DNA from: Rhizobium sp. ACO-34A
Lineage (GTDB): Bacteria > Pseudomonadota > Alphaproteobacteria > Rhizobiales > Rhizobiaceae
Length of the DNA: 64,000 nt
Assembly: GCA_002600635.1 (NCBI GenBank)
Contig: CP021371.1
Coordinates: forward strand, 1,057,001 to 1,121,000
Reading direction: 5' to 3'
The position numbers were made by a program, and so were the translations under genes. Every line of letters begins with the position of its first letter. Within the stretch, counting starts at the first letter, position 1. Positions 14,056 through 62,486 of this stretch are shown piece by piece. The notes beneath the pieces are model-generated. The model saw only the letters and a program-made list of their open reading frames with translations. It was not told the origin of the DNA and searched no databases.

Positions 14056-14128
14056 GGCGCTCTAACGTCCTGAAGCTACATATCGAGCTTTCCGAAAATC
14101 GATTCCGGTTTTCGGGCCGATTCGTTAG
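14056..14128. repeat. partial copy of palindromic intergenic repeat (shared with 51050-51154)
   Basis: About 70 bp nearly identical to the right half of the element at 51050. It contains GCTCTAACGTC, then TATCGAGCTTTCCGAAAATC, a 10-bp stem (CCGAAAATCG / CGGTTTTCGG, loop ATTC) and ends GGCCGATTCGTTAG. It lies between adhP and oxyR and encodes the last residues of OxyR on the minus strand. Confidence 0.75.
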
Positions 14129-22707: not shown

Positions 22708-23568
22708 ATGACCGTGCCGTTGATAAATCTGGAAAGCTACGATCTCCTGCAGACAGAGATGAAGGCCGAGCATCTTGATGGGCTGCATGCCCTTTCGGCC
22801 AGCATCGGCTGGCCGCACAGGAAGGCTGACTGGGCCGTAAACCTCGCTGCCGGAAAGGGTATCGTTGCGGTCGACGAGAGCGGCCGCATTCACGGCTCCG
22901 CCATGTACTTCACTCTCGGTGGCGATGTGTCTGCCGTCGGCATGGTGATTGCTCATCCGCGCCTGAAGCTGGAGGGGCTGGCGACCTGCCTCATGGCCAA
23001 TATCGTCGAGCGAACCGAAGATCGTCCGGCCTTCCTCAATGCATGTAATGATGTGGTGCCGTTCTATCGGTCGCTTGGCGCGCTCCCTGTCGGCCCGGTG
23101 TTTCAGCATCAGGGTATCGTTGGTCCGGTATCTATCTCGAAGGGCAGATGCCGCGTCGCTGAGGCCCCGGATTTGCCGCAACTTATTGCCTGTGACGCTG
23201 ATGCCCATGGGGTGGATCGCAGCACCTTGATCCTCGAACTCTGGCGTGTGTCCGAGACGGTGGTGATCGAACGAAGGGGCAGGATCCGTGGCTTTGCCAT
23301 GCGCCGCCAATTCGGTCGCGGCCATCTGATTGGCCCGATCATTGCGGAAAAGGAAGTTGACGCGATTGCACTCGTGGAAGCTTTCGTGGCGAACCTTCCG
23401 GGCAGTTTTGTCCGGGTGGATACGCGCGTGAAGCACGGTCCCTTCCGTCAGTATCTTGAAAACAGCGGTCTTGTGCCGGTCATGAATGTGGTCAACATGA
23501 CGTTCGGCCAGCTTCCGTCGCGTGGTTCCAACGCGGTGTTTGGCCTTTCCAGCCATTCGACAGGCTAG
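22708..23568 (+). CDS. GNAT family N-acetyltransferase (tandem domains)
   Basis: A 286-residue protein with an N-terminal GNAT acetyl-CoA-binding region (GIVAVDESGRIHGSAMYF, then VGMVIAHPRLKLEGLATCLM, the usual beta4-alpha3 loop with R/Q-x-x-G-x-A character). The C-terminal half is a second, degenerate GNAT-like domain (RIRGFAMRRQFGRGHLIGPIIAE). The family includes many small-molecule acetyltransferases; the substrate is unknown. Start ATG 22708 is preferred over in-frame GTG 22696. The stop TAG at 23566-23568 is the left target site of the IS630 element, yet the protein is not altered by it. Confidence 0.82.
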   Translation: MTVPLINLESYDLLQTEMKAEHLDGLHALSASIGWPHRKADWAVNLAAGKGIVAVDESGRIHGSAMYFTLGGDVSAVGMVIAHPRLKLEGLATCLMANIVERTEDRPAFLNACNDVVPFYRSLGALPVGPVFQHQGIVGPVSISKGRCRVAEAPDLPQLIACDADAHGVDRSTLILELWRVSETVVIERRGRIRGFAMRRQFGRGHLIGPIIAEKEVDAIALVEAFVANLPGSFVRVDTRVKHGPFRQYLENSGLVPVMNVVNMTFGQLPSRGSNAVFGLSSHSTG

Positions 23569-23574
23569 AGCGTT

Positions 23575-24180
23575 TCATGTTTTGTTTGAAGCGTAGCCAG
23601 CGTTGACAAGGTAGTTGGCACACTCGTCTGGGCTGATGGTTTGGACGAGTGAGCCAAGATGGCGCCAAGTGTCGTCGATAGTCCGCATTTGTGCTTTTCG
23701 CATCCAATGCTTGATCTTGGCAAAGGCCTGTTCGATCGGATTGAGGTCTGGTGAATAGGGCGGCAAGAACCAGAGCCTTGCGCCGGCGGCCTTGATCAAC
23801 TGGCGTATCTGCCCGGATTTGTGGCTGCCCAGATTGTCCATGATGACGATGTCGCCTGGCCGCAGCGTCGGGACGAGTTGTTGCTCGACATAAGCCTTGA
23901 AGCATTGGCCATTGATCGGGCCGTCGAAGACGCAAGGGGCGGTGAGACGATCGGCCCGGAGCGCGCCGACGAAGGTCAACGTGCGCCAATGGCCATGCGG
24001 AGCAAAGCCACGCAGGCGTTTGCCCTTGACACCCCAGCCGTAGAGCGGGGCCATATTGGTTTTGATCCAGGTTTCGTCGATGAACACGAGCCTTTGAGGA
24101 TCGAGCGACCTCTGCCATGACTGCCAGCGCTTGCGCCGACGAGCAATGTCAGTGCGTGCCTGTTCAAGGGCAAACATCGT
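23575..24180 (-). CDS. IS630 transposase OrfB (DDE catalytic part), reached by slippage at A8
   Basis: The catalytic DDE domain. The first Asp is in VFIDETWIKTN, the second in IVIMDNLGSHKS, and the Glu in SPDLNPIEQAFAKIKHW, the IS630 signature. It is read in a different frame from OrfA. A +1 (or equivalent transcriptional) slip on eight A residues (24180-24187) fuses 114 residues of OrfA to 201 residues here, giving a 315-residue transposase. This is normal expression for several IS630 members, not a disabling mutation. Confidence 0.88.
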   Translation of the reverse strand, partial: TMFALEQARTDIARRRKRWQSWQRSLDPQRLVFIDETWIKTNMAPLYGWGVKGKRLRGFAPHGHWRTLTFVGALRADRLTAPCVFDGPINGQCFKAYVEQQLVPTLRPGDIVIMDNLGSHKSGQIRQLIKAAGARLWFLPPYSPDLNPIEQAFAKIKHWMRKAQMRTIDDTWRHLGSLVQTISPDECANYLVNAGYASNKT

Positions 24181-24523
24181 TTTTTTTGAAGCGCAGCCCC
24201 TCGCGGCGCAGGAAACGCCAAACGGCGTCATGCGAGACAATCACGCCTCTCACCGCCAATTCGTCCTTGAGGCCGTGCAGGCTGATCTGCGGCGTCTGAA
24301 CAATCCGCTCGGCTATGAAAGCACGATGCGGTTCCAAAAGGCGTTTGCGATGCCCTCCCATCTGACCGGGTGCGACGGAGCCGCTGCGGCGATACCGCTG
24401 CGACCACTTCACAACAGATGACACCGAGACACCGAACCGCGCCGCCACCGAGCGGCAGCTCTCTCCCGCCGCAACAGCGCCCACAACTCGTTCACGCAGA
24501 TCATTCGAAAGAGGTGCGACCAT
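24164..24523 (-). CDS. IS630 transposase OrfA (helix-turn-helix part)
   Basis: The N-terminal DNA-binding region: LSNDLRERVVGAVAAGESCRSVAARFGVSVSSVVKWSQRYR is a homeodomain-like helix-turn-helix, followed by a second such unit (LKDELAVRGVIVSHDAVWRFLRREG). The start ATG 24523 follows AGGAGGTCAGCATTG. Alone it ends shortly after the A8 run (KKNDVCP). About 114 codons are used before slippage into OrfB. Confidence 0.88.
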   Translation of the reverse strand: MVAPLSNDLRERVVGAVAAGESCRSVAARFGVSVSSVVKWSQRYRRSGSVAPGQMGGHRKRLLEPHRAFIAERIVQTPQISLHGLKDELAVRGVIVSHDAVWRFLRREGLRFKKNDVCP

Positions 24524-24654
24524 CAATGCTGACCTCCTCTCAGCCAGCATCTTGAATCACATTCGATCCCAAAAGGGAATCCGCGATTCAAACAAAGTCA
24601 GAAACGCTCTAGAGGACTGTATCCCGGCTTTCCGGAGACAGGAATGAGACGGCG

Positions 24655-32508: not shown

Positions 32509-33243
32509 ATCAAACCCCTATTGAGCAATTACGTTTCGCAAGAACGCAAAACGAACGCCTCAAAACGGGATTTGTTCCTTTGAGCGCGAAAAAATCTTCG
32601 CGTCCTGCCTGTCAATGACGCAAGCAGGCCAGTTGGGGAAAGCGCGTCCTTACAGTTGCAATCCTGATTGATGTCTCAATCCATGGGTCACCATACGGAG
32701 AACATGATGGCAGGATTGGGGATGAAACAACCCTTGAATGCCGACCCTGAAGTGCGAATGCGAACCTTGTTCACGCAGGAATGTTGCACGGTTTCGGCCG
32801 ACCGGTTTCCTCATGGCCTCCTTGGCGAGGAATGCCCCAAGACCGGATGCCGGCGGTGATTGCCATCAGATTATCCTCAACACCACGCCGCAGACTTTTT
32901 CAACAGCCTGCCAGATCTGCCCTGTTTGCCGCCATCACGCGAAAACTCACCGTGCGGGCGAACGCCTTGCTGCATGACGAGTGGAAACGGCCGCCAAACA
33001 CGCCTGACCAAAACGGATCCTCCAAAATCGTTCGAAGACGGACAGCGATATTGTCAATTATATATACGTTCTGTATGTTAAATTAATTGTGAAGACTCTT
33101 TTAAGGAAAGGCCAACTGCGACCAACTCCGACTTCATTCGGTCCATCAGCCATGAGCCGAACAAGCACATGCGCAACTACGAAATGGGGTTCATGCCCGC
33201 ATTGACTGTTTTCGTCGCGGGGGAGGTGCAATCGAGAGCGATA
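32509..33243. other. gene-free divergent promoter region
   Basis: 735 bp between mfpsA and the CDP-glycerol transferase-like gene. No convincing gene: short open frames (for example 32668-32859) lack family resemblance and good ribosome sites. It contains a CGCGAA/TTCGCG hairpin at 32585-32602 and an AT-rich stretch at 33040-33110 holding a promoter candidate. Confidence 0.5.
33051..33079 (+). promoter_or_regulatory. candidate sigma-70-type promoter
   Basis: TTGTCA and TATGTT are separated by 17 bases within a strongly AT-rich patch (33040-33110) that contrasts with the surrounding GC-rich DNA. It would give a leader of about 160 bases for the gene at 33244. Confidence 0.4.
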
Positions 33244-34275
33244 ATGACCAAGCACTACCTTCTCTATGGTTCCGAACGCTATGCACTGGCGATCCTGCGC
33301 CCGATCCAGGCGGCCATTCGTGCGCGCGGCGATAAAGTGGCCTGGTTTTTCGATGGCCCCGGTGCGGAAGAGCTGACCGCCGACGAAACGCTGTTGACGG
33401 TGGCACAGGTGCGCGCCTGGAAGCCATATGCGGTGATCACTTCGAGCAATGCGGTGCCGCATTTCTTCCCCGGGGTGAAGGTCGAGACCTTTCATGGTTT
33501 CGACGCCGGCAAGCCGAGACACATCTACGTGCGCGGCTTCTTCGACCTTTACTGCACCACCGGCCCACGCGACACTACCGCGTTCTCGGAGCTGTCCAGG
33601 CAACTGGGGCACTTCAAGGTCGTCGAAACCGGGTTCCCGAAAATCGACCCGTTCATGACGCAACTGGGCAACGCTTCGGAACCGGTGCGTAAACCGCCGC
33701 TGATCCTCTATCACTCCACGTTTTCACCATCCTGGAGCGCCGCGCCCGTCCTCTACGACGAAATCCAGCGGCTCTCGCAAAGTGGCGAGTTCCGCTGGGT
33801 CGTCAGCTTCCATCCGAAGATGGATCCGGTCATCGTGGCCAGATACAAAACCCTGCAGAACGAGTACCTGAGCTTCGCCGAAAACGACAACATCCTGGAA
33901 CTGTTTTCGCAGGTTGATCTGATGTGCTCGGACACCTCATCAGCGCTCAACGAGTTCCTGCTAACCTACAAGCCTGTAGTGACATTCAGGAATCGCCGCC
34001 CGGGTCCGCATCTGATCGACATTGACGATCCGGCGCAGTTCGAGCCGGCGATCCGTCGCGCGCTGTCGCGGCCACCGGAACTGATGTCGGCGGTGCGCGA
34101 ATTCGCCGATCAGCTGCATCCCTATCGTGACGGCTGCTCCAGCGAGCGCGTGCTGGAAGCGATCGACGCTTATGTCGCCGCTGGCGCGCGCACTCCCCGG
34201 CCCAAGCCGGCCAATCTCTGGCGCAAGTTCAAGATCCGCAAGCGGATCGGCTACTGGGGGCCAGCTGGCATCTAG
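33244..34275 (+). CDS. CDP-glycerol glycerophosphotransferase-like protein
   Basis: A 343-residue protein resembling the TagB/TagF-type CDP-glycerol:polyol phosphotransferase fold. SSNAVPHFFPGVKVETFHGFDAGKPRH holds the conserved HG-x-x-x-GK-like motif, then VETGFPKIDPF, WVVSFHPKMDP, and the carboxyl-side SQVDLMCSDTSSALNEFLL, where the SDTSS loop is the nucleotide-binding signature. Gram-negative members transfer glycerol-phosphate or related groups to surface glycans. The ATG at 33244 starts the conserved region; an earlier in-frame ATG at 33169 lacks a ribosome site. It stands alone, without other capsule genes. Its TAG stop lies on a repeat element. Confidence 0.75.
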   Translation: MTKHYLLYGSERYALAILRPIQAAIRARGDKVAWFFDGPGAEELTADETLLTVAQVRAWKPYAVITSSNAVPHFFPGVKVETFHGFDAGKPRHIYVRGFFDLYCTTGPRDTTAFSELSRQLGHFKVVETGFPKIDPFMTQLGNASEPVRKPPLILYHSTFSPSWSAAPVLYDEIQRLSQSGEFRWVVSFHPKMDPVIVARYKTLQNEYLSFAENDNILELFSQVDLMCSDTSSALNEFLLTYKPVVTFRNRRPGPHLIDIDDPAQFEPAIRRALSRPPELMSAVREFADQLHPYRDGCSSERVLEAIDAYVAAGARTPRPKPANLWRKFKIRKRIGYWGPAGI

Positions 34276-34377
34276 GGAATTGCCAGCAAAAGTGGGAACC
34301 GGTTTTGCGTCTGGAATTAAGTCGAAACAAGGAGATGGAGAATTGAAGGCGATCCCGTTTTCGCCGGAAATGGTCTA
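34273..34377. repeat. MITE-like palindromic repeat, copy A
   Basis: About 100 bp between TA (34273-34274) and TA (34376-34377), both of which belong to stop codons of the two convergent genes. It contains CCAGCAAAAGTGGGAACCGG, TTTTGCGTCTGGAATT, AAACAAGGAGATGGAG and a final GTTTTCGCCGGAAATGGTC. The order of blocks matches copy B at 43817 read in reverse, and its first block matches copy C at 48944. Confidence 0.75.
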
Positions 34378-35649
34378 GTGACCTTCGGAGTGGCTCTTGC
34401 GGATACGCCGGACCACCCACCAGACGCCGAGGACGGCAATCGGCACCGACACCCCGGTGATGACGGCCGGATCGACCGGCAGCACGTCATGGCTGACGGC
34501 CTTTGATGCGTAGCCCACAAGGCCGACGATGTAATAGGAGATCGCCGCCACCGAGAGGCCTTCGACGGTCTGCTGCAGGCGAAGCTGCATTTCCGCGCGC
34601 CGGTTCATCGTGTTCAGAAGGTCGGAGTTCTGGCGCTCCAGTTCCACGTCGATCCAGCTTCTGACGAGGCCGGTTGCTCGCGACAGCTTGCGCGACAGGT
34701 TGGCCTGCCGCTCCTCGACCGACTGACAGGTCCGCATGGCGGGCGCAAGACGGCGTTCCAGGAAGGAACCGAGCGTTTCATAGCCGGGCACTGGAGCCTC
34801 ATCGAGCGTCTTGATGCGCTCGCCGACGATGCCGTCATAGGCGCGGCTCGCGCCGAAGCGGTAGAGGCTGAGCGCCGCATTGGCCTCGAGTTCGGCCGCG
34901 AGACGGGTGATCTCGGCCAGAATGCCGTCGGCCTCTGCGCGCGCATGCATCTTCATCTGCTGTGTGACGCCGGTCAGGCCATCCTCGATCCGCCGGATCT
35001 CGGGCGAAAGCGTCTGGGCCAGCGGCAGGCCGAGCATGGCGAGCGTGCGGTAGGTCTCGATGTCGAGCAGGCGCTGCACCAGCGCACCGCGCCCTGCCTC
35101 CGTCAGGCTCCGGTCGATCAGGAGAATGCGGGTCAGGCCGTCACCGTCCTGCCGGAAGTCTGTCAGCACCGAGGCCTGCCCGTTCTTCAGGTGGCTATAA
35201 CAGAGGCTCGCGGGGTCGAACATGGCCATGGCTTCGTCGGTCTCCGGGCCTTCCGGCCGGATTTCCAGCCGGATGCCGGACATCAGCGGGCCGGGCGGCG
35301 AGAAACCGTCGCCAAACGGATGCGAGCTGACTTCGCCGCCGAATTTCTCCGGCAACGGCCCATCCCAGAACCAGGTCGAAAACTCGGTGTGGCGCTCCCA
35401 GCGCAGCGTTCCCTGACCCCAGGGCATGGCGTGGTGACGGGCGTTCTTGTCCGGCGGCGCGACGCCACGGGCGCGCGAAACTTCCGTCAGAACGCTATGG
35501 TGCACCGCCGAACCGCCATCCATTGTGAAGGCGAGCTGGAAGATGACGCGCGAGGATTTGACCAGCGCATAAGGCCGCGCGTGAATCTCTCCGAGCGCCA
35601 GCGCCCGTTCCGGCGCGACCGGAAATGCGAAGTTCCCCTTTGACATCAA
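34375..35649 (-). CDS. DUF3422 family membrane-anchored protein
   Basis: A 424-residue alphaproteobacterial protein of the DUF3422 family. The N-terminal signature is ALALGEIHARPYALVKSSRVIFQLAF, a central coiled-coil-like region follows (EADGILAEITRLAAELEANAALSLYRFGASRAY), and two closely spaced C-terminal transmembrane helices (AISYYIVGLVGYAS; VITGVSVPIAVLGVWWVVRRI) end it. The function is unknown; the layout suggests a cytoplasmic body anchored to the inner membrane. Its TAG stop coincides with the right edge of a repeat, facing the CDP-glycerol transferase-like gene. Confidence 0.88.
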   Translation of the reverse strand: MMSKGNFAFPVAPERALALGEIHARPYALVKSSRVIFQLAFTMDGGSAVHHSVLTEVSRARGVAPPDKNARHHAMPWGQGTLRWERHTEFSTWFWDGPLPEKFGGEVSSHPFGDGFSPPGPLMSGIRLEIRPEGPETDEAMAMFDPASLCYSHLKNGQASVLTDFRQDGDGLTRILLIDRSLTEAGRGALVQRLLDIETYRTLAMLGLPLAQTLSPEIRRIEDGLTGVTQQMKMHARAEADGILAEITRLAAELEANAALSLYRFGASRAYDGIVGERIKTLDEAPVPGYETLGSFLERRLAPAMRTCQSVEERQANLSRKLSRATGLVRSWIDVELERQNSDLLNTMNRRAEMQLRLQQTVEGLSVAAISYYIVGLVGYASKAVSHDVLPVDPAVITGVSVPIAVLGVWWVVRRIRKSHSEGH

Positions 35650-40061: not shown

Positions 40062-40104
40062 AATTGGCCAAGGTGCATTCTTCGATCAAACGACACGCAG
40101 TATT

Positions 40105-40268
40105 TGCCCCTCACCCTGCCCCTCTCCCCGCAAGCGGGGCGAGGGAACGGAGAGCCCTCGGCTTGTTTCTGGCGCCATCTATCAGGATGAGTAACGCCGT
40201 TTGCGGCGGGATTCCTTCCCCCCGCTTGCGGGGAGAAGGGTCCGCAGGACGCAGCCGGATGAGGGGCA
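40105..40268. repeat. RIME-type double-hairpin repeat between glcD and glcE
   Basis: Arms TGCCCCTCACCC and GGATGAGGGGCA bound the element. Inside are two GC-rich palindromes, CTCCCCGCAAGCGGGG and CCCCGCTTGCGGGGAGAAGG, separated by about 70 bp unique to this copy. It is the same family as copies at 47343 and 55149. The name is by resemblance to Rhizobium intergenic mosaic elements, from memory. Confidence 0.8.
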
Positions 40269-43357: not shown

Positions 43358-43819
43358 ATGCGCGTCGTGACTGCTGGCCTTGCCACTCTGCTGTTTGTCG
43401 CATGCTGTCCGGCCTACGCGGCCGAACGTCTCTATTGTGCCGCCGCTGACGAGGTCTTGAAACTGTCGATCGAAAGCGACATCAGCAAGCGCGACAAGGG
43501 CAAGCTGGTAAATTTCCGGGGCGTGGTCGGTATCCGGGATGAAAAGGTTCCACCGGCCTTTCGCCACCTGCGTTTCGATACGCCCGTTCTCGCAGAGCAA
43601 TCGCTGAACAATCGGCAGCTTCGTTTGCAGGTATCGTCCGGTCTGCAGGACAAGAAATTGCTCGGCAGTTTCGAGTTGACGATCCTCACCACGCCCACCC
43701 AGAAGGCGGAACGCTTCCAGGGCAATTACGCCATCCGGATATCGATATCACCGGATAACAAAACCCCGCGTGACGTTGTGCTGTCACACGGGGCTTCGGT
43801 CGTCTGTTATCTGCGCTAG
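43358..43819 (+). CDS. small secreted protein of unknown function
   Basis: A 153-residue protein with a clear Sec signal, MRVVTAGLATLLFVACCPAYAA, cleaved before ERLYCAA. The mature part is beta-rich with a pair of cysteines (near the start and in VVCYLR at the end) that could form a disulfide joining both ends. No known domain was recognised. GGAAGGAAAGATCGA precedes ATG 43358; an upstream TTG at 43334 is less likely. Its stop codon TAG is the left boundary of a MITE-like repeat. Confidence 0.75.
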   Translation: MRVVTAGLATLLFVACCPAYAAERLYCAAADEVLKLSIESDISKRDKGKLVNFRGVVGIRDEKVPPAFRHLRFDTPVLAEQSLNNRQLRLQVSSGLQDKKLLGSFELTILTTPTQKAERFQGNYAIRISISPDNKTPRDVVLSHGASVVCYLR

Positions 43820-43919
43820 AGCGTTTCCGTTTTTCTCGGAAACGTGAAAACGCTCTATCTCTTTGTTTTAACGCATTCCCGGACGCAAAACCGCTTCGCA
43901 CTTTTGCTGGAAATGCTCT
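43817..43919. repeat. MITE-like palindromic repeat, copy B
   Basis: Starts TAGAGCGTTTCCG inside the stop codon of the secreted-protein gene and ends GGAAATGCTCT, whose complement AGAGCATTTCC matches the start at 10 of 11 positions. Internally there are hairpin arms GAGCGTTT and AAACGCTC flanking a TTTCC/GGAAA pair, then TCTCTTTGTTTTAACGC and CGCAAAACCGCTTCGCAC. Block order is that of copy A reversed. Confidence 0.78.
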
Positions 43920-43947
43920 TGGCCTCGCGCGGCGAGGCCTCAGCGTC

Positions 43948-44852: not shown

Positions 44853-45539
44853 TCAGCCGCCGAGAATGGTGCGCAGGATGTCGATGCCGCGATCTTCGAA
44901 GCTCACATCGCCCTGCTTGTTGCCGGGGCCGACCACGATGACCTTCGCGCCGATATCCGCACGATCGTAGAGGTGCTCGACATCCTTGTTCATCATGCGG
45001 ATGCAGCCGGACGACATGTTCAGGCCGATGGTCCAGGGCTGGTTGGTGCCGTGAATACGGAAGATCGTGTCGCGACCGCCCTTGAAGAGATACATGGCGC
45101 GCGCGCCGAGCGGGTTGTCGACGCCGCCTTCCTGAACGACCGGCAGCATATGGCCCTTCTTGGCCTCGCGGGCGCGCATCTCAGCCGGCGGACGCCAGCT
45201 CGGCCATTCTTCCTTGCGGCCGATCTTGACCACGCCCGACCAGCCGAAGCCGTCGCGGCCGACGCCCACGCCGTAGCGGGTCGCGCGGTTGTTGCCTTCG
45301 ACGTGGTAGAGGAACTTGTTGTTGGTATCGATGATGATCGTGCCGGGCTTTTCGTCGGTCACGAGACGGACGACGCGCCTCTTGAACTTTTCGGCCACCT
45401 GCTTCGGTTGAGCCGCTGCCAGCGTCACGTCGCTGGTTGTCGCCGGACGATTGCCGCTGAAGGCCTGTGCCTCGATCGGAGCCAGCGCGCTGGTCGCCAT
45501 CATCGCCGCCGCCGCAAGCACATTCACGTATTTCTGCAT
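44853..45539 (-). CDS. L,D-transpeptidase (YkuD domain), first of two
   Basis: A 228-residue periplasmic enzyme with signal MQKYVNVLAAAAMMATSALAPIEAQA. The YkuD domain spans about residues 60-220: PGTIIIDTNNKFLYHVEGNNRATRYGVGVG starts it and HGTNQPWTIGLNMSSGCIRM holds the catalytic His and Cys. Such enzymes form 3-3 peptidoglycan cross-links or attach proteins to peptidoglycan, both prominent in Rhizobiales polar growth. GGGGGA precedes ATG 45539; a TTG at 45554 is in frame but less likely. A paralogue lies immediately upstream. Confidence 0.92.
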   Translation of the reverse strand: MQKYVNVLAAAAMMATSALAPIEAQAFSGNRPATTSDVTLAAAQPKQVAEKFKRRVVRLVTDEKPGTIIIDTNNKFLYHVEGNNRATRYGVGVGRDGFGWSGVVKIGRKEEWPSWRPPAEMRAREAKKGHMLPVVQEGGVDNPLGARAMYLFKGGRDTIFRIHGTNQPWTIGLNMSSGCIRMMNKDVEHLYDRADIGAKVIVVGPGNKQGDVSFEDRGIDILRTILGG

Positions 45540-45671
45540 GATCAAATCCCCCAAATCACGGAAACGGGAGCCTATCCGACTCCCGTTTCAATGCAAGCCT
45601 TTCAGCATTTGCTCATAAGAAATAACCGCAATGCAAGGCCATATGCAGGACTATCAGGCATGCTGTGTGAT

Positions 45672-46460
45672 TTACATCACGATGACCTTCGTGCCCACGC
45701 CGACCCGCTCATAGAGATCGACGACGTCTTCATTGCGCATGCGGATGCAGCCGGAGGATACGCCGTTGCCGATCGTCCAGGGGGCGTTGGTGCCGTGAAT
45801 GCGGTAGAGCGTGGAGCCGAGGTACATGGCGCGGGCGCCGAGCGGGTTTTCCGGTCCACCGTCCATGCGGGCCGGCAGATAGTGGCCCTTGGCGGCTTCG
45901 CGGGCGATCATTTCCTTCGGCGGCGTCCAGTCCGGCCATTCCTTCTTGGCGGTGATCTTGTGGGTGCCGGCCCATTCGAAGCCCGGCTTGCCGACACCGA
46001 CGCCATAGCGCTTTGCCTGGCCGTTGCCGGTCACGAGATAGAGGAAACGGTTGTTGGTATCGATGACGATGGTGCCTGCCTTGTGCGGGGTGTCGTAGGC
46101 GACCATCTGCGGCAGGAACACCGGATCGATCTGCGTCTTCACCGGCTGGTTGGGGCGCATGGCGGCCGGCTGCACCATCTGCGGCTGGGCGACCTGCGGC
46201 ATCGGCGTCCGACGCTGGGCGACGGGGCGCTGCTGGACCGGACGTTGCTGATAGGTGCGGACCTGCTGGCGCGGCTGCTGTGCCGGGTTCGGCGCATAGA
46301 CGACCGGGCGCGTGGCGCCGCCAAGCTGCATCACCCAGGGAGCCGAAAGATCGGGGCTGACGATCACCGGAGGACGCGTCTGGTACCGGTCATCGGCAAG
46401 GGAGGGCGTTGCGGCAATCAGGCCGGCACAGGCGGCCAGGAATATCGACTTCTTCAACAT
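45672..46460 (-). CDS. L,D-transpeptidase (YkuD domain), second of two
   Basis: A 262-residue paralogue of the neighbour. Signal MLKKSIFLAACAGLIAATPSLA is followed by a Gln/Arg/Pro-rich linker (QQRPVQQRPVAQRR, MRPNQPVKTQIDP) of about 75 residues, probably spanning or binding cell wall. The YkuD domain then has PHKAGTIVIDTNNRFLYLV and HGTNAPWTIGNGVSSGCIRM with the catalytic His and Cys. The two genes are 132 bp apart and probably expressed separately. Longer frames upstream to 46649 lack a signal peptide and are rejected. Confidence 0.92.
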   Translation of the reverse strand: MLKKSIFLAACAGLIAATPSLADDRYQTRPPVIVSPDLSAPWVMQLGGATRPVVYAPNPAQQPRQQVRTYQQRPVQQRPVAQRRTPMPQVAQPQMVQPAAMRPNQPVKTQIDPVFLPQMVAYDTPHKAGTIVIDTNNRFLYLVTGNGQAKRYGVGVGKPGFEWAGTHKITAKKEWPDWTPPKEMIAREAAKGHYLPARMDGGPENPLGARAMYLGSTLYRIHGTNAPWTIGNGVSSGCIRMRNEDVVDLYERVGVGTKVIVM

Positions 46461-47299: not shown

Positions 47300-47342
47300 G
47301 GGGACGTGTACCGAAATGATATTCGGGTCTTGAAGCTCGGCT

Positions 47343-47477
47343 TGCCCCTCACCCTAGCCTCTCCCCGCTAGCGGGGAGAGGGAAATCCCTGCCCCATTTT
47401 GATGGGTGAGCACGCACTTCCGCTTGTCTCTTCTCCCCGCAAGCGGGGAGAAGGTCCCGGCAGGGGGATGAGGGGCA
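47343..47477. repeat. RIME-type double-hairpin repeat between tag and tag-like gene
   Basis: Bounded by TGCCCCTCACCC and GGATGAGGGGCA. Contains CTCTCCCCGCTAGCGGGGAG and TTCTCCCCGCAAGCGGGGAG palindromes with about 50 bp between. It separates two convergent genes, the classic location. Confidence 0.85.
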
Positions 47478-48943: not shown

Positions 48944-48998
48944 TAGAGCAATTCCAGCAGAAGTGGGAACCGGTTTTGCGTCCGCAATTGCGCGTAGA
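48944..48998. repeat. MITE-like palindromic repeat, partial copy C
   Basis: Begins TAGAGCAATTCCAGC and runs through GAAGTGGGAACCGGTTTTGC and GTCCGCAATTGCGTAGAC before degrading. It matches one half of copies A and B. The other half is absent or too diverged to see. Confidence 0.7.
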
Positions 48999-49049
48999 CA
49001 ATGCTCCGGCGTCGTCTTCGGTTTTTGACGAGGCCGTGGCAGGACGAGT

Positions 49050-50161: not shown

Positions 50162-51052
50162 ATGACCTTCGAACAGCTTTCCATCTTCGTCGCCGTTGCC
50201 GAGCGCGAGCATCTGACACGGGCTGCCGAGGCCATCGGTCTCACGCCTTCGGCCGTCAGTGCCGCGATCCGCAATCTGGAGGCCTATTACCGCGTGGCTC
50301 TGTTCAACCGGGTCGGGCGACGCATCGAACTCACTATGGAAGGTCGTCTCTTTCTCGATGAGGCACGCGCCACGCTCGCCCGCGCCCGCTCCGCCGAACT
50401 GATGCTGTCGGAGCTCGGAGGGCTGTCACGCGGCCGGCTTGCGGTTCAGGCCAGCCAGACGGTTGCGAGCTATTGGCTGCCCTCCCTGCTGATGCGGTTT
50501 CATGCGGAATATCCCGGCATCGAGCTGGAGTTCACCATTGGCAACACCCGGTCCGTGGCGCAGGCGGTGAATGCGGGCACCGCCGATATCGGCTTTGTCG
50601 AAGGATCGGTCGATGATCCCGCGCTTGCGGTTATGAAGGTGGCGGACGACGCGCTTCTGGCAGTGGTCGCGCCCGGGCATCCCTTCTCCGATGGCCAGCC
50701 GCTTTCCGCCAGTCAACTGGTCGAGGAAACTGGCTGGATCATGCGCGAGAAGGGATCGGGCACACGCGCCGCCTTCGAGGATACGCTTCGCGGTCTCGGC
50801 GTCGATCCGGCTCTCCTGAGAAATGTGCTGACCTTGCCCTCCAACGAGGCCGTGCTGTCGGCTGTTGTCGTCGGCCCCTGCGCGGCCGTTGTGTCAAGTA
50901 TCGCCGCGGCGGGCCGGCTGGCAAGTGGAGAACTGGTGGCCGTGAACTTCTCGCTGCCGGTCCGGCAGTTTTCCATCCTGCGACACAAGGAGCGCCGCCC
51001 CAGCCGGTCGGCGTCCGTGCTGGAAAGGATGAGCCTCGATCAGGCGGGCTAG
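50162..51052 (+). CDS. LysR family transcriptional regulator (YeiE/CbbR-like)
   Basis: A 296-residue regulator: MTFEQLSIFVAVAEREHLTRAAEAIGLTPSAVSAAIRNLEAYY is the helix-turn-helix half, and RLAVQASQTVASYWLPSLL begins the effector domain, a form common in CbbR/YeiE regulators that sense sulfur or carbon status. It is divergent from the YeiH-family exporter, its probable target. The start ATG 50162 was preferred over an upstream in-frame GTG/ATG. The stop codon TAG is the left boundary of a palindromic repeat. Confidence 0.9.
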   Translation: MTFEQLSIFVAVAEREHLTRAAEAIGLTPSAVSAAIRNLEAYYRVALFNRVGRRIELTMEGRLFLDEARATLARARSAELMLSELGGLSRGRLAVQASQTVASYWLPSLLMRFHAEYPGIELEFTIGNTRSVAQAVNAGTADIGFVEGSVDDPALAVMKVADDALLAVVAPGHPFSDGQPLSASQLVEETGWIMREKGSGTRAAFEDTLRGLGVDPALLRNVLTLPSNEAVLSAVVVGPCAAVVSSIAAAGRLASGELVAVNFSLPVRQFSILRHKERRPSRSASVLERMSLDQAG

Positions 51053-51154
51053 AGCGCCGTGCGTCCATTCGGACGCACAAAGGACGCTCTAACATCTTGA
51101 ATCTACGCATCGAGCTTTCCGAAAATCGATTCCGATTTTCGGGCCGATGCGCTA
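51050..51154. repeat. palindromic intergenic repeat with two ATTC-loop hairpins
   Basis: Runs from TA in the LysR stop codon to TA in GCGCTAG. The first hairpin is GTGCGTCC/GGACGCAC with loop ATTC; the second is CCGAAAATCG/CGATTTTCGG, also with loop ATTC. Between them is GCTCTAACATCTTGAATC. The right half recurs at 14056-14128 with about 85-90% identity by eye. Confidence 0.8.
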
Positions 51155-51172
51155 GCCCGAGGCCTCCCTGTT

Positions 51173-55137: not shown

Positions 55138-55148
55138 CTATTCCAGAT

Positions 55149-55263
55149 TGCCCCTCACCCCAACCCTCTTCCCGCAGGCGGGGAGAGGGGGTGGAACGGC
55201 TGCGGTATGCGTCCTTCTCCCCGTCGCGACGGGGAGAAGGTGCCGGCAGGCGGATGAGGGGCT
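55149..55263. repeat. RIME-type double-hairpin repeat between hisS and hisZ
   Basis: TGCCCCTCACCC and GGATGAGGGGC bound a 115-bp element with palindromes CTCTTCCCGCAGGCGGGGAG and CTTCTCCCCGTCGCGACGGG. It lies in the 153-bp gap inside the his transcription unit. Confidence 0.85.
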
Positions 55264-60479: not shown

Positions 60480-60617
60480 TACCAACGAAAAAGGGCGATC
60501 CGTAGGTCGCTCTTTCCGAATTTTGAGTTGAGTGGCTCAGATATGCGACATCCACCTCGCATTATGTCTATATGCCGCCCGTTCAGCGCGCTCGATGCGC
60601 TGAACCACTCAAGATGA
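60480..60617 (-). repeat. decayed copy of groEL 3' end and terminator, unit III
   Basis: About 138 bp, aligned with 60640-60777. It carries a degraded terminator (60488-60512), GGCTCAGAT, an altered groEL tail (minus-strand GGCATATAGACATAATG in place of GGCATGGACATGATG) and the palindrome GTTCAGCGCG/TGCGCTGAAC at 60581-60605. Confidence 0.75.
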
Positions 60618-60639
60618 TGGGCGGCATTGGCGAACATGC

Positions 60640-60777
60640 TGCCACGAAAAAGGGCGACCCGAAGGCCGCCCTCTCGCAAGACTGAACCGGATGGCTCAGA
60701 TGTGCAGGCTTTCGCCTATCACATCATGTCCATGCCGCCCGTTCAGCGCGCTTGACGCGCTGAACCACTTAAAGTGC
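60640..60777 (-). repeat. copy of groEL 3' end and terminator, unit II
   Basis: About 138 bp. It includes an exact copy of the last groEL codons and stop (GGCATGGACATGATGTGA on the minus strand), the following GATAGGCGAAAGCC, a perfect palindrome GTTCAGCGCG/CGCGCTGAAC (60741-60765) and an intact terminator at 60647-60671. Confidence 0.82.
60647..60671 (-). terminator. probable groESL transcript terminator
   Basis: On the minus strand GGGCGGCC and GGTCGCCC pair (one G-T) around a UUCG tetraloop, followed by five T residues. It lies about 150 bases past the groEL stop, inside repeat unit II. Confidence 0.8.
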
Positions 60778-60805
60778 ATGGGCGAAGCTTTATGGTCATG
60801 GCTGC

Positions 60806-60821
60806 GATAGGCTTTCGCCTA

Positions 60822-60823
<2 letters not shown>
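60806..60823 (-). other. GNRA hairpin overlapping the groEL stop
   Basis: GATAGGC and GCCTATC pair around GAAA, a very stable tetraloop. The stem starts inside the groEL stop codon. It has no T-run, so it may protect the mRNA 3' side or act with the terminator further on. Confidence 0.6.

Positions 60824-62486
<1,663 letters not shown>

What the first reader, a model, noticed from the sequence alone, without database searches (positions are those of the whole stretch)
34273..34377. Candidate MITE family sharing termini with the resident IS630 element
Elements at 34273-34377, 43817-43919 and (partly) 48944-48998 share ordered blocks (AGCAAAAGTG, CCGGTTTTGCGTC or CCGCTTCGCAC, AAACAAGGAGAT). Their ends read TAGAGC[GA]WTTCC-like on both sides, so they have short terminal inverted repeats. 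Two are flanked by TA at one or both ends. The complete IS630 at 23566 has termini TAGAGCGTTTC. Non-coding elements of about 100 bp with TA flanks and matching ends are what a non-autonomous derivative mobilised by an IS630 transposase would look like. That the IS moves them is inference.
Basis: partly seen in the sequence, partly recalled or inferred. Interest (0 to 1): 0.75.

Follow-up and report, generated by a model that had tools for sequence, protein, structure and literature searches.

The report
IS630-driven mini-transposons in rhizobial genomes
Short two-hairpin repeats scattered through the genomes of soil bacteria look like tiny non-coding transposons that insert at TA and carry the end signal of one branch of IS630 insertion sequences, which suggests how a long-known class of unexplained bacterial repeats spreads.

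Summary
The window has two full and one shortened copy of a ~101-bp two-hairpin element; the genome has at least 62. TA bounds 32/57 left and 33/58 right edges (background 1.8%). Of five filled/empty comparisons in Rhizobium plasmids, one shows a clean TA duplication, three are consistent, one is inconclusive.

Its ends point to one alphaproteobacterial IS630 clade. The tip TA|GAGCRTTTC is shared. The right end also resembles the IS end beside the transposase start over 26 bp (24/26 for the 43817 copy against a Brucella cytisi IS630; 19/26 against the resident IS), with an inner GAATC box 21 bases from the tip. The left end shares only the tip.

So it is most likely an IS630-type MITE, but the resident IS is not its best-matching partner. 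Mobilisation is inferred. Against it: five of twelve congeners with copies show no IS630 DDE domain, and G007, rich in near-identical copies, shows only a fragment of another kind.

The architecture fits the published description of CIR repeats, whose mobility was listed as unresolved. It is not the repeat at the classical RIME locus. Some copies of two other families also have GAATC at position 21.

The parts
34275..34375 (+). Element copy 1 (101 bp); TA at 34273-34274 and 34376-34377
   Evidence: two convergent mechanical ORFs (33169-34275 and 34375-35649) end in TAG codons made of the element's own TA|G edges
34278..34320 (+). Hairpin 1 of copy 1 (left module, approximate)
   Evidence: consensus fold and compensatory changes across relatives; coordinates transferred by me
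34338..34375 (+). Hairpin 2 of copy 1 (right module, approximate)
   Evidence: coordinates transferred by me
43819..43918 (-). Element copy 2, subfamily B (100 bp); TA at 43817-43818, degenerate TT at 43919-43920
   Evidence: its right end matches an IS630 end at 24 of 26 bases
48946..49006 (+). Shortened copy (left module plus right tip; probably an internal deletion); TA at 48944-48945
   Evidence: the deletion reading is inference from sequence
23568..24609 (-). IS630-family insertion sequence, 1042 bp, TA at 23566-23567 and 24610-24611, tips GAGCGTTTC
23575..24240 (-). Transposase part with DDE_3 domain
24164..24550 (-). Upstream transposase part with helix-turn-helix domains, in another frame
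51052..51152 (+). Second two-hairpin family (resembles the repeat at the presumed classical RIME locus); TA at 51050-51051 and 51153-51154; GAATC 21 bases from its right tip
14058..14128 (+). Partial copy of the same second family
   Evidence: 89% to 51085-51155

Best explanation
The element is a non-autonomous mini-transposon (MITE). Its right end is a version of the 26-bp end of an alphaproteobacterial IS630 clade (outer box GAGCRTTTC at bases 1-9, inner box GAATCG at 21-26); its left end has only the outer tip. A clade transposase acting in trans is proposed to cut at the GAGC tips and insert the element at a TA, which becomes duplicated. The two hairpins are kept by selection or by the way it moves. 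Because the tip begins with G, insertion into the TA of a stop codon gives back a TAG stop, and copies are over-represented at ORF ends. Shown here: TA flanks, an absent/present difference of element plus 2 bp, end similarity, hairpin covariation. Inferred: that an IS630 transposase does the moving, and that the hairpins matter for it.
For: TA edges in own copies far above background. G007: ten single copies (L098-L107), L110 and a tandem pair run from TA to TA in unrelated flanks, 103-104 bp where measured. Filled/empty sites in Rhizobium plasmids: site 2 clean (empty CTCGGC-TA-GCACATC; filled TA-element-TA), sites 1, 4 and 5 consistent. IS630 clade: tip GAGC at 82 of 98 ends of 49 IS; GAGCRTTTC at 34 of 58 ends of those with at least 70% amino-acid identity and 0 of 40 of the more distant. 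Bases 10-26 of the element's right end match the transposase-start IS end better than at least 99 of 100 shuffles in 32 of 41 own copies, against 0 of 41 for the left end. Inner GAATC at base 21 in 50 of 54 IS, GAGTC in 2 more; GANTC at that base in 20 of 41 own elements. 11 of 23 hairpin pairs show changes on both sides. Both IS and element show recent activity in this genome (IS copies identical; four subfamily-B copies 94-98%).
Against: No transposition seen. All twelve congeners searched (G001-G012) have at least one element match, but five of them (G001, G002, G004, G010, G011) have no DDE_3 match and G007 only a contig-end fragment. The left end matches IS ends only at the tip. Right ends of G14 do not match (0 of 6) and those of G7 only partly (1 of 8 against the start end, 4 of 8 against the other); 9 of 41 own copies also fail. 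42 of 58 places lack TA on one or both sides. Site 3 was inconclusive; site 1 (filled) and site 5 (empty) show TG in place of TA.
Confidence: 0.8

Rival explanations
1. An IS5/IS427-type transposase, which also targets TA (CTAG), moves the element.
For: G007 has 8 DUF4096 matches, 7 of them in loci cut off by a contig end, as a multicopy IS would give; the edge was read in 6 of those and meets TA each time. Brucella IS711 duplicates TA and inserts in a 103-bp Bru-RS1 palindrome (PMC3163539, passages).
Against: Where edges could be found the tips differ: TA|GGTCTTGTGG in G007; TA|GGCTGAATCGACATT, GGATCAATCGACATT and GGCTGTGGTGACA in the own genome; TA|GGCTCTGTTGACA in G009; none is GAGC. No pair was found for five other loci (L252-L256). 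IS711 uses such repeats as a target, which is a different relation.
Confidence: 0.07
2. A host-functional DNA or RNA structure (methylation, transcription or mRNA-end element) duplicated by another route, with IS-like ends by chance or capture.
For: Strong hairpin covariation; frequent position at ORF ends; GANTC in the loop fits a methylation-linked role speculated for CIR repeats (PMC2229807, passages).
Against: TA edges, 2-bp difference at empty sites, IS-like right end with fixed spacing. A host role is compatible with being mobile.
Confidence: 0.08
3. RAYT/IS200-like mobilisation of hairpins, as for REP elements.
For: Hairpins and mosaic modules, solo and tandem left modules.
Against: IS200-type insertion gives no TA duplication (general knowledge); the right end matches IS630. 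No RAYT search was made.
Confidence: 0.03

Closest known systems
CIR repeats (Chen and Shapiro 2003; read here only as described in PMC2229807 passages)
   Same: About 110 bp, two long inverted-repeat arms joined by a linker, TA at the termini, GANTC at the loop of one arm, alphaproteobacteria
   Different: CIR1-CIR4 sequences were not held, so homology was not tested. GANTC is in 22 of 46 own copies and in 0 of 8 G007 and 0 of 4 G004 copies. The review gives TSD as unknown and the mechanism of mobility as open; here a TA duplication and an IS630 end are proposed.
RUP of Streptococcus pneumoniae (PMC2229807 passages)
   Same: 107 bp, TA target, short TIR like an IS630 (IS630-Spn1), proposed trans-mobilisation
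   Different: Unrelated host; no two-arm hairpin architecture is described for RUP in the passages seen; here only one end extends beyond the tip
RIME (Osteras 1995; paper not held, cited in PMC2573895 and PMC2245857)
   Same: Rhizobial intergenic repeat; two palindromes (recalled)
   Different: In the presumed chvI-chvG interval of R. leguminosarum Vaf-46 a different repeat is found; the finding's element was not found in that region in any of 8 genomes examined
ISRm2011-2-type IS630 elements (PMC4496777 passages)
   Same: IS630 family of Sinorhizobium; a candidate relative of the autonomous partner
   Different: Its ends were not compared by name; the one S. meliloti IS630 locus examined (L248) has GAGT tips

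Membership tests
IS630-type MITE | Short, non-coding, multicopy | tested here: met
   about 98-103 bp in full copies, at least 62 places; far too short for a transposase
IS630-type MITE | 2-bp TA target duplication | tested here: met
   One clean, three consistent, one inconclusive site of five
IS630-type MITE | Both ends like those of an IS630 | tested here: inconclusive
   Tip shared at both ends; bases 10-26 match at the right end in 32 of 41 own copies and at the left in 0 of 41 (start end) or 1 of 41 (other end)
IS630-type MITE | Mobilised in trans by an IS630 transposase | not testable with these tools
   needs an experiment
CIR repeat | Two hairpin arms and linker, about 110 bp | tested here: met
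   1352 of 1403 cells paired in 61 elements
CIR repeat | TA at termini | tested here: met
CIR repeat | GANTC in the loop of one arm | tested here: inconclusive
   22 of 46 own copies; 0 of 8 G007, 0 of 4 G004, 1 of 2 R. leguminosarum, 1 of 6 G014
CIR repeat | Sequence homology to CIR1-CIR4 | not tested
   sequences not held
RIME | Is the repeat of the chvI-chvG region | tested here: not met
   best alignment scores 25-36 in 8 regions, shuffle maxima 26-32 (four regions 1-6 above their shuffles, far below a real copy); a different repeat lies there in L280. Gene identities inferred from order and ORF length.
Bru-RS1 | Sequence homology | not tested
   only its length and TA use were read

The most novel reading that the evidence does not exclude
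Most of the small palindromic intergenic repeats of rhizobia and relatives (this family, the RIME-like family, the GAGCATAATCC family, probably CIR) are MITEs of one IS630 clade, recognised by a TA|tip and an inner GAATC box fixed 21 bases inside. The GANTC site noted in CIR loops would then be a transposase box, which may double as a CcrM methylation site: the IS630 clade itself carries GANTC beside its transposase start in 49 of 49 elements examined, so its transposition may be tied to the cell cycle, as Dam methylation controls IS10 (recalled).
Probability: 0.3. Interest if true: 0.78.

Novelty: new variant of a known kind. Interest (0 to 1): 0.6.

Why it matters
Rhizobial intergenic repeats are described as sequences of unknown function (PMC2573895, passage) and the mobility mechanism of the similar CIR repeats as unresolved (PMC2229807, passages). 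Tying one such family to a transposase clade by a TA duplication and a two-box end makes the origin of alphaproteobacterial palindromic repeats directly testable, gives an alternative reading of the GANTC in CIR loops, and points to a way of inserting at stop codons that restores a stop.

Tried and rejected
I first took the element for RIME from memory. The chvI-chvG test did not support that: a different repeat sits there in L280. That this interval is the classical RIME locus is recall plus a paper title; the genes there were inferred from gene order and ORF length. Rfam gave no match for it at gathering scores (only a tRNA in the window). The idea that the IS630 merely sits inside a palindrome was rejected because its three copies share nothing beyond TA on the left and TAG on the right. 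The IS5/IS427 rival was checked and disfavoured on tips. A similarity between the AAACAAA linker and the resident IS subterminal stretch was seen but is not kept in other IS of the clade, so I set it aside. A co-variation lead in G014 (extra T in both IS tip and element left tip) rests on one IS, and its right ends do not match, so I do not count it. Assigning the short hairpin families to other IS630 subgroups by tip alone was not convincing. The stop-codon effect is partly expected, since 27 of 220 non-coding TAs in the window are already stop codons.

Rows dropped: TIR pairs were sought in 62 of the 80 loci (which kept 80 of 545); 13 of 62 fell below my score cut; one search took back 5 of those (54 of 62). 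One search used 61 distinct of 63 elements chosen for full length. One search used 46 of 58 copies. In one search three of 22 loci gave no left edge, and L118 repeats the site of L117.

Full report
What is there. The window lies in a 6.28-Mb genome of five contigs, by its relatives a member of the Rhizobiaceae (inference hits). Two full element copies (34275-34375 plus strand; 43819-43918 minus strand) and a shortened one (48946-49006) are present. Whole-genome searches with the two full copies gave 43 and 44 matches at E<=0.001, merged to 58 places. Three further places came with a consensus query (list cut) and the 48944 copy was in none of these lists, so at least 62; each search scored only 40 of 93-115 candidates in this genome. 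I read all 58 with flanks.

Anatomy. The consensus is GAGCAATTCC-AGCAAAAGTGGGAACCGGTTTTGCG-TCC-GGAATTGC (hairpin 1), a linker near GTGAAAACAAAGAGA, and TAGAGCATTGAAGGCGATTCCGTTTTCGCCGGAAATGCTC (hairpin 2). A subfamily B reads GAGCATTTCC... and ...GCGTTTTC...GAAACGCTC. In an alignment of 61 distinct elements (41 own, 8 G007, 4 G004, 2 R. leguminosarum, 6 G014) the consensus fold keeps both hairpins; 1352 of 1403 cells pair and 11 of 23 pairs show changes on both sides, 106 cells in all. Related sequences inflate such cell counts, and the structure was predicted from the same alignment. Left modules occur alone and as three tandem copies at C1:1488090-1488294.

TA edges. In 58 places the outer dinucleotide is TA at 32 of 57 left and 33 of 58 right edges, and at both in 16 of 58; TA background in the flanks is 1.8%. 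Of 14 G007 loci fetched, ten single copies (L098-L107) and L110 have TA at both ends, as has the tandem pair L097, whose members share one TA; L109 has TA on the left only and L108 holds left modules. Of six G004 loci, L112-L115 have TA at both ends; L111 has another right part and L116 is cut by the contig (right edge of L113 reads CCCTA). Lengths measured in G007 are 103-104 bp including the TAs. Eight G007 copies are 93-100% identical, mean 97.6%.

Empty sites. I examined five sites in named Rhizobium plasmids. Site 1 (SAM methyltransferase/DUF3095): filled in L119, L120, L121; empty in L123, L124, L128; empty GTGC-TA-ACACATG, filled GTCC-TG-element-TA-ACACATG. Site 2 (ROK/DMT): filled L117, L118; empty L126, L127 (L125 has a deletion); empty CTCGGC-TA-GCACATCTC, filled CTCGGC-TA-element-TA-GTACACCTC. 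Site 4 (EAL/ABC): filled L306; empty L316, L317, each with one TA, in flanks that have diverged. Site 5 (SDR/MFS): filled L308 has CC-TA-element-TA; empty L318, L319 have CC-TG. Site 3 (response regulator/hypothetical): filled L302; the empty alleles L315, L320 are unrelated next to the element on one side, inconclusive. Searches listed 60 of 152 and 60 of 138 records, searches listed 40 each of 153, 136, 205 and 202, so I did not count alleles over all strains. (L304) was a second view of site 1.

The resident IS. It is 1042 bp; three copies have 0 differences and different flanks beyond TA. Its transposase lies in two frames with DDE_3 and helix-turn-helix domains. In the plasmid collection 517 records have some match and 56 hold at least 80% of it; for the element the figures are 468 and 50.

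The IS clade. From one scan of species genomes (80 loci kept of 545) I gave 62 loci to a search for terminal inverted repeats that required only TA at both sides; 49 passed my score cut. Their tips: GAGC at 82 of 98 ends. GAGCRTTTC occurs at 34 of 58 ends of IS with at least 70% amino-acid identity to the resident transposase and at 0 of 40 ends of the rest. The resident IS and ten plasmid IS have GAGC at 21 of 22 ends. In 19 further IS630 loci of related genomes a scan for TAGAGC showed credible end pairs in L129, L138, L133, L089 and L146, single tips in a few others, and nothing in L135, L139, L141, L143 and L145.

The two-box end. Beside the transposase start, the IS end has GAATC at base 21 in 50 of 54 IS and GAGTC in 2 more; GATTC follows some 10 bases further in 47 of 54. 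The other end has GAAGC there in 36 of 54 (last figure counted by eye). GANTC is within 40 bases of the start end in 49 of 49 (6.5 expected by shuffling) and of the other end in 8 of 49 (6.6 expected). The element's right end has GANTC at base 21 in 20 of 41 own copies; in a wider set 22 of 46 have GANTC, each time in that loop. I compared bases 10-26 with 60 IS. For the right end against the start end, 32 of 41 own copies beat at least 99 of 100 shuffles; the eight labelled subfamily B by a simple motif rule all do, mean 14.25 of 17 against 7.3. Left ends: 0 of 41 against the start end and 1 of 41 against the other. Others, right end, start end/other end: G004 3/3 of 4, R. leguminosarum 1/2 of 2, G007 1/4 of 8, G014 0/0 of 6. 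The 43817 copy matches the Brucella cytisi IS L184 at 24 of 26 bases; L181 and L184 have different flanks, so those are true IS ends. Against the resident IS it is 19 of 26 (counted by eye).

Other families. The pattern TAGAGC-N18-48-GCTCTA occurs 34 times in the genome; by eye these belong to a few hairpin families. The reversed-pattern control gave 82, so the pattern alone is not rare and the case rests on the sequences. Thirteen were read with flanks. In a GAGCATAATCC family (5 copies, 4 measured) GAATC is at base 21 in two and at 17 in two with a shorter hairpin. In a RIME-like family six copies were tried; the search motif was found in four, and three of these (51050 copy, L299, L110 flank) have a TA that puts GAATC at base 21, the fourth (L297) does not.

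Stop codons. In 46 own copies, 15 of 49 TAG edges end a mechanical ORF of at least 100 aa, against 50 of 725 other TAGs in the same loci; 16 of 46 elements have this on some side. All three IS630 copies do (ORFs of 290, 311, 337 aa), and 9 of 18 sites in G007, G004 and R. leguminosarum. Among non-coding TAs of the window 27 of 220 are stop codons, so part of the excess is expected from selection against coding insertions.

Against the reading. All twelve congeners G001-G012 have at least one element match (16 of 21 genomes in all), but G001, G002, G004, G010 and G011 have no DDE_3 match, and G007, with many near-identical copies, has only a contig-end DDE_3 fragment with no TAGAGC in the 1694 bases held and no match to the resident transposase at E<=1e-10. 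Draft assemblies lose repeats, but this remains open. The IS5/IS427 elements in G007 also meet TA, but with other tips.

Literature. RIMEs, Sm repeats and A/B/C motifs are known in S. meliloti, and such rhizobial sequences are called of unknown function (PMC2573895, PMC2245857; passages). CIR repeats match in architecture, with mobility unresolved (PMC2229807; passages). A 2024 review of prokaryotic MITEs names CIR and RUP but holds neither 'IS630' nor 'rhizobi' (PMC10969869; term search). Ten searches of this library showed me, in listings and the passages read, no paper tying rhizobial repeats to IS630; most subscription papers are not held and I read none of the listed papers in full, so this is not proof of novelty.

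Noticed in passing
L172-L250 (49 IS630 elements): GANTC (CcrM-type) sites, usually a GAATC...GATTC pair some 10 bases apart, sit just inside the end beside the transposase start in 49 of 49 elements, while the other end is at chance level (8 of 49); could be an inverted-repeat operator or methylation control.
   Followed up: partly
51050-51155 and 14058-14128: A second two-hairpin family that resembles the repeat in the presumed chvI-chvG interval of R. leguminosarum; in the 51050 copy GAATC is 21 bases from its right tip.
   Followed up: partly
G000:C1:2611433-2611862 (L257) and G000:C2 near 386000 (L262): IS5-type elements abut the TA edge of an element copy and of an IS630 remnant; the CTAG made at such edges may be an IS5 target, as for IS711 in Bru-RS1.
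   Followed up: partly
L292-L296: A third family (GAGCATAATCC...TTCAAACAAAAGAGTT...GCGCTC) with similar linker and TA edges, present also beside a G007 copy (L106).
   Followed up: partly
40104-40145, 47341-47382, 55148-55189: Another short repeat family (CCCCTCACCCT..CTCTCCCCGCAAGCGGGG) in three places with inverted partners.
   Followed up: no
44934-46082: Two related stretches (264 nt at 70% and 136 nt at 74%) repeated at a spacing of 732-744 bases.
   Followed up: no
60485-60843: Local direct repeats of 35-62 nt.
   Followed up: no
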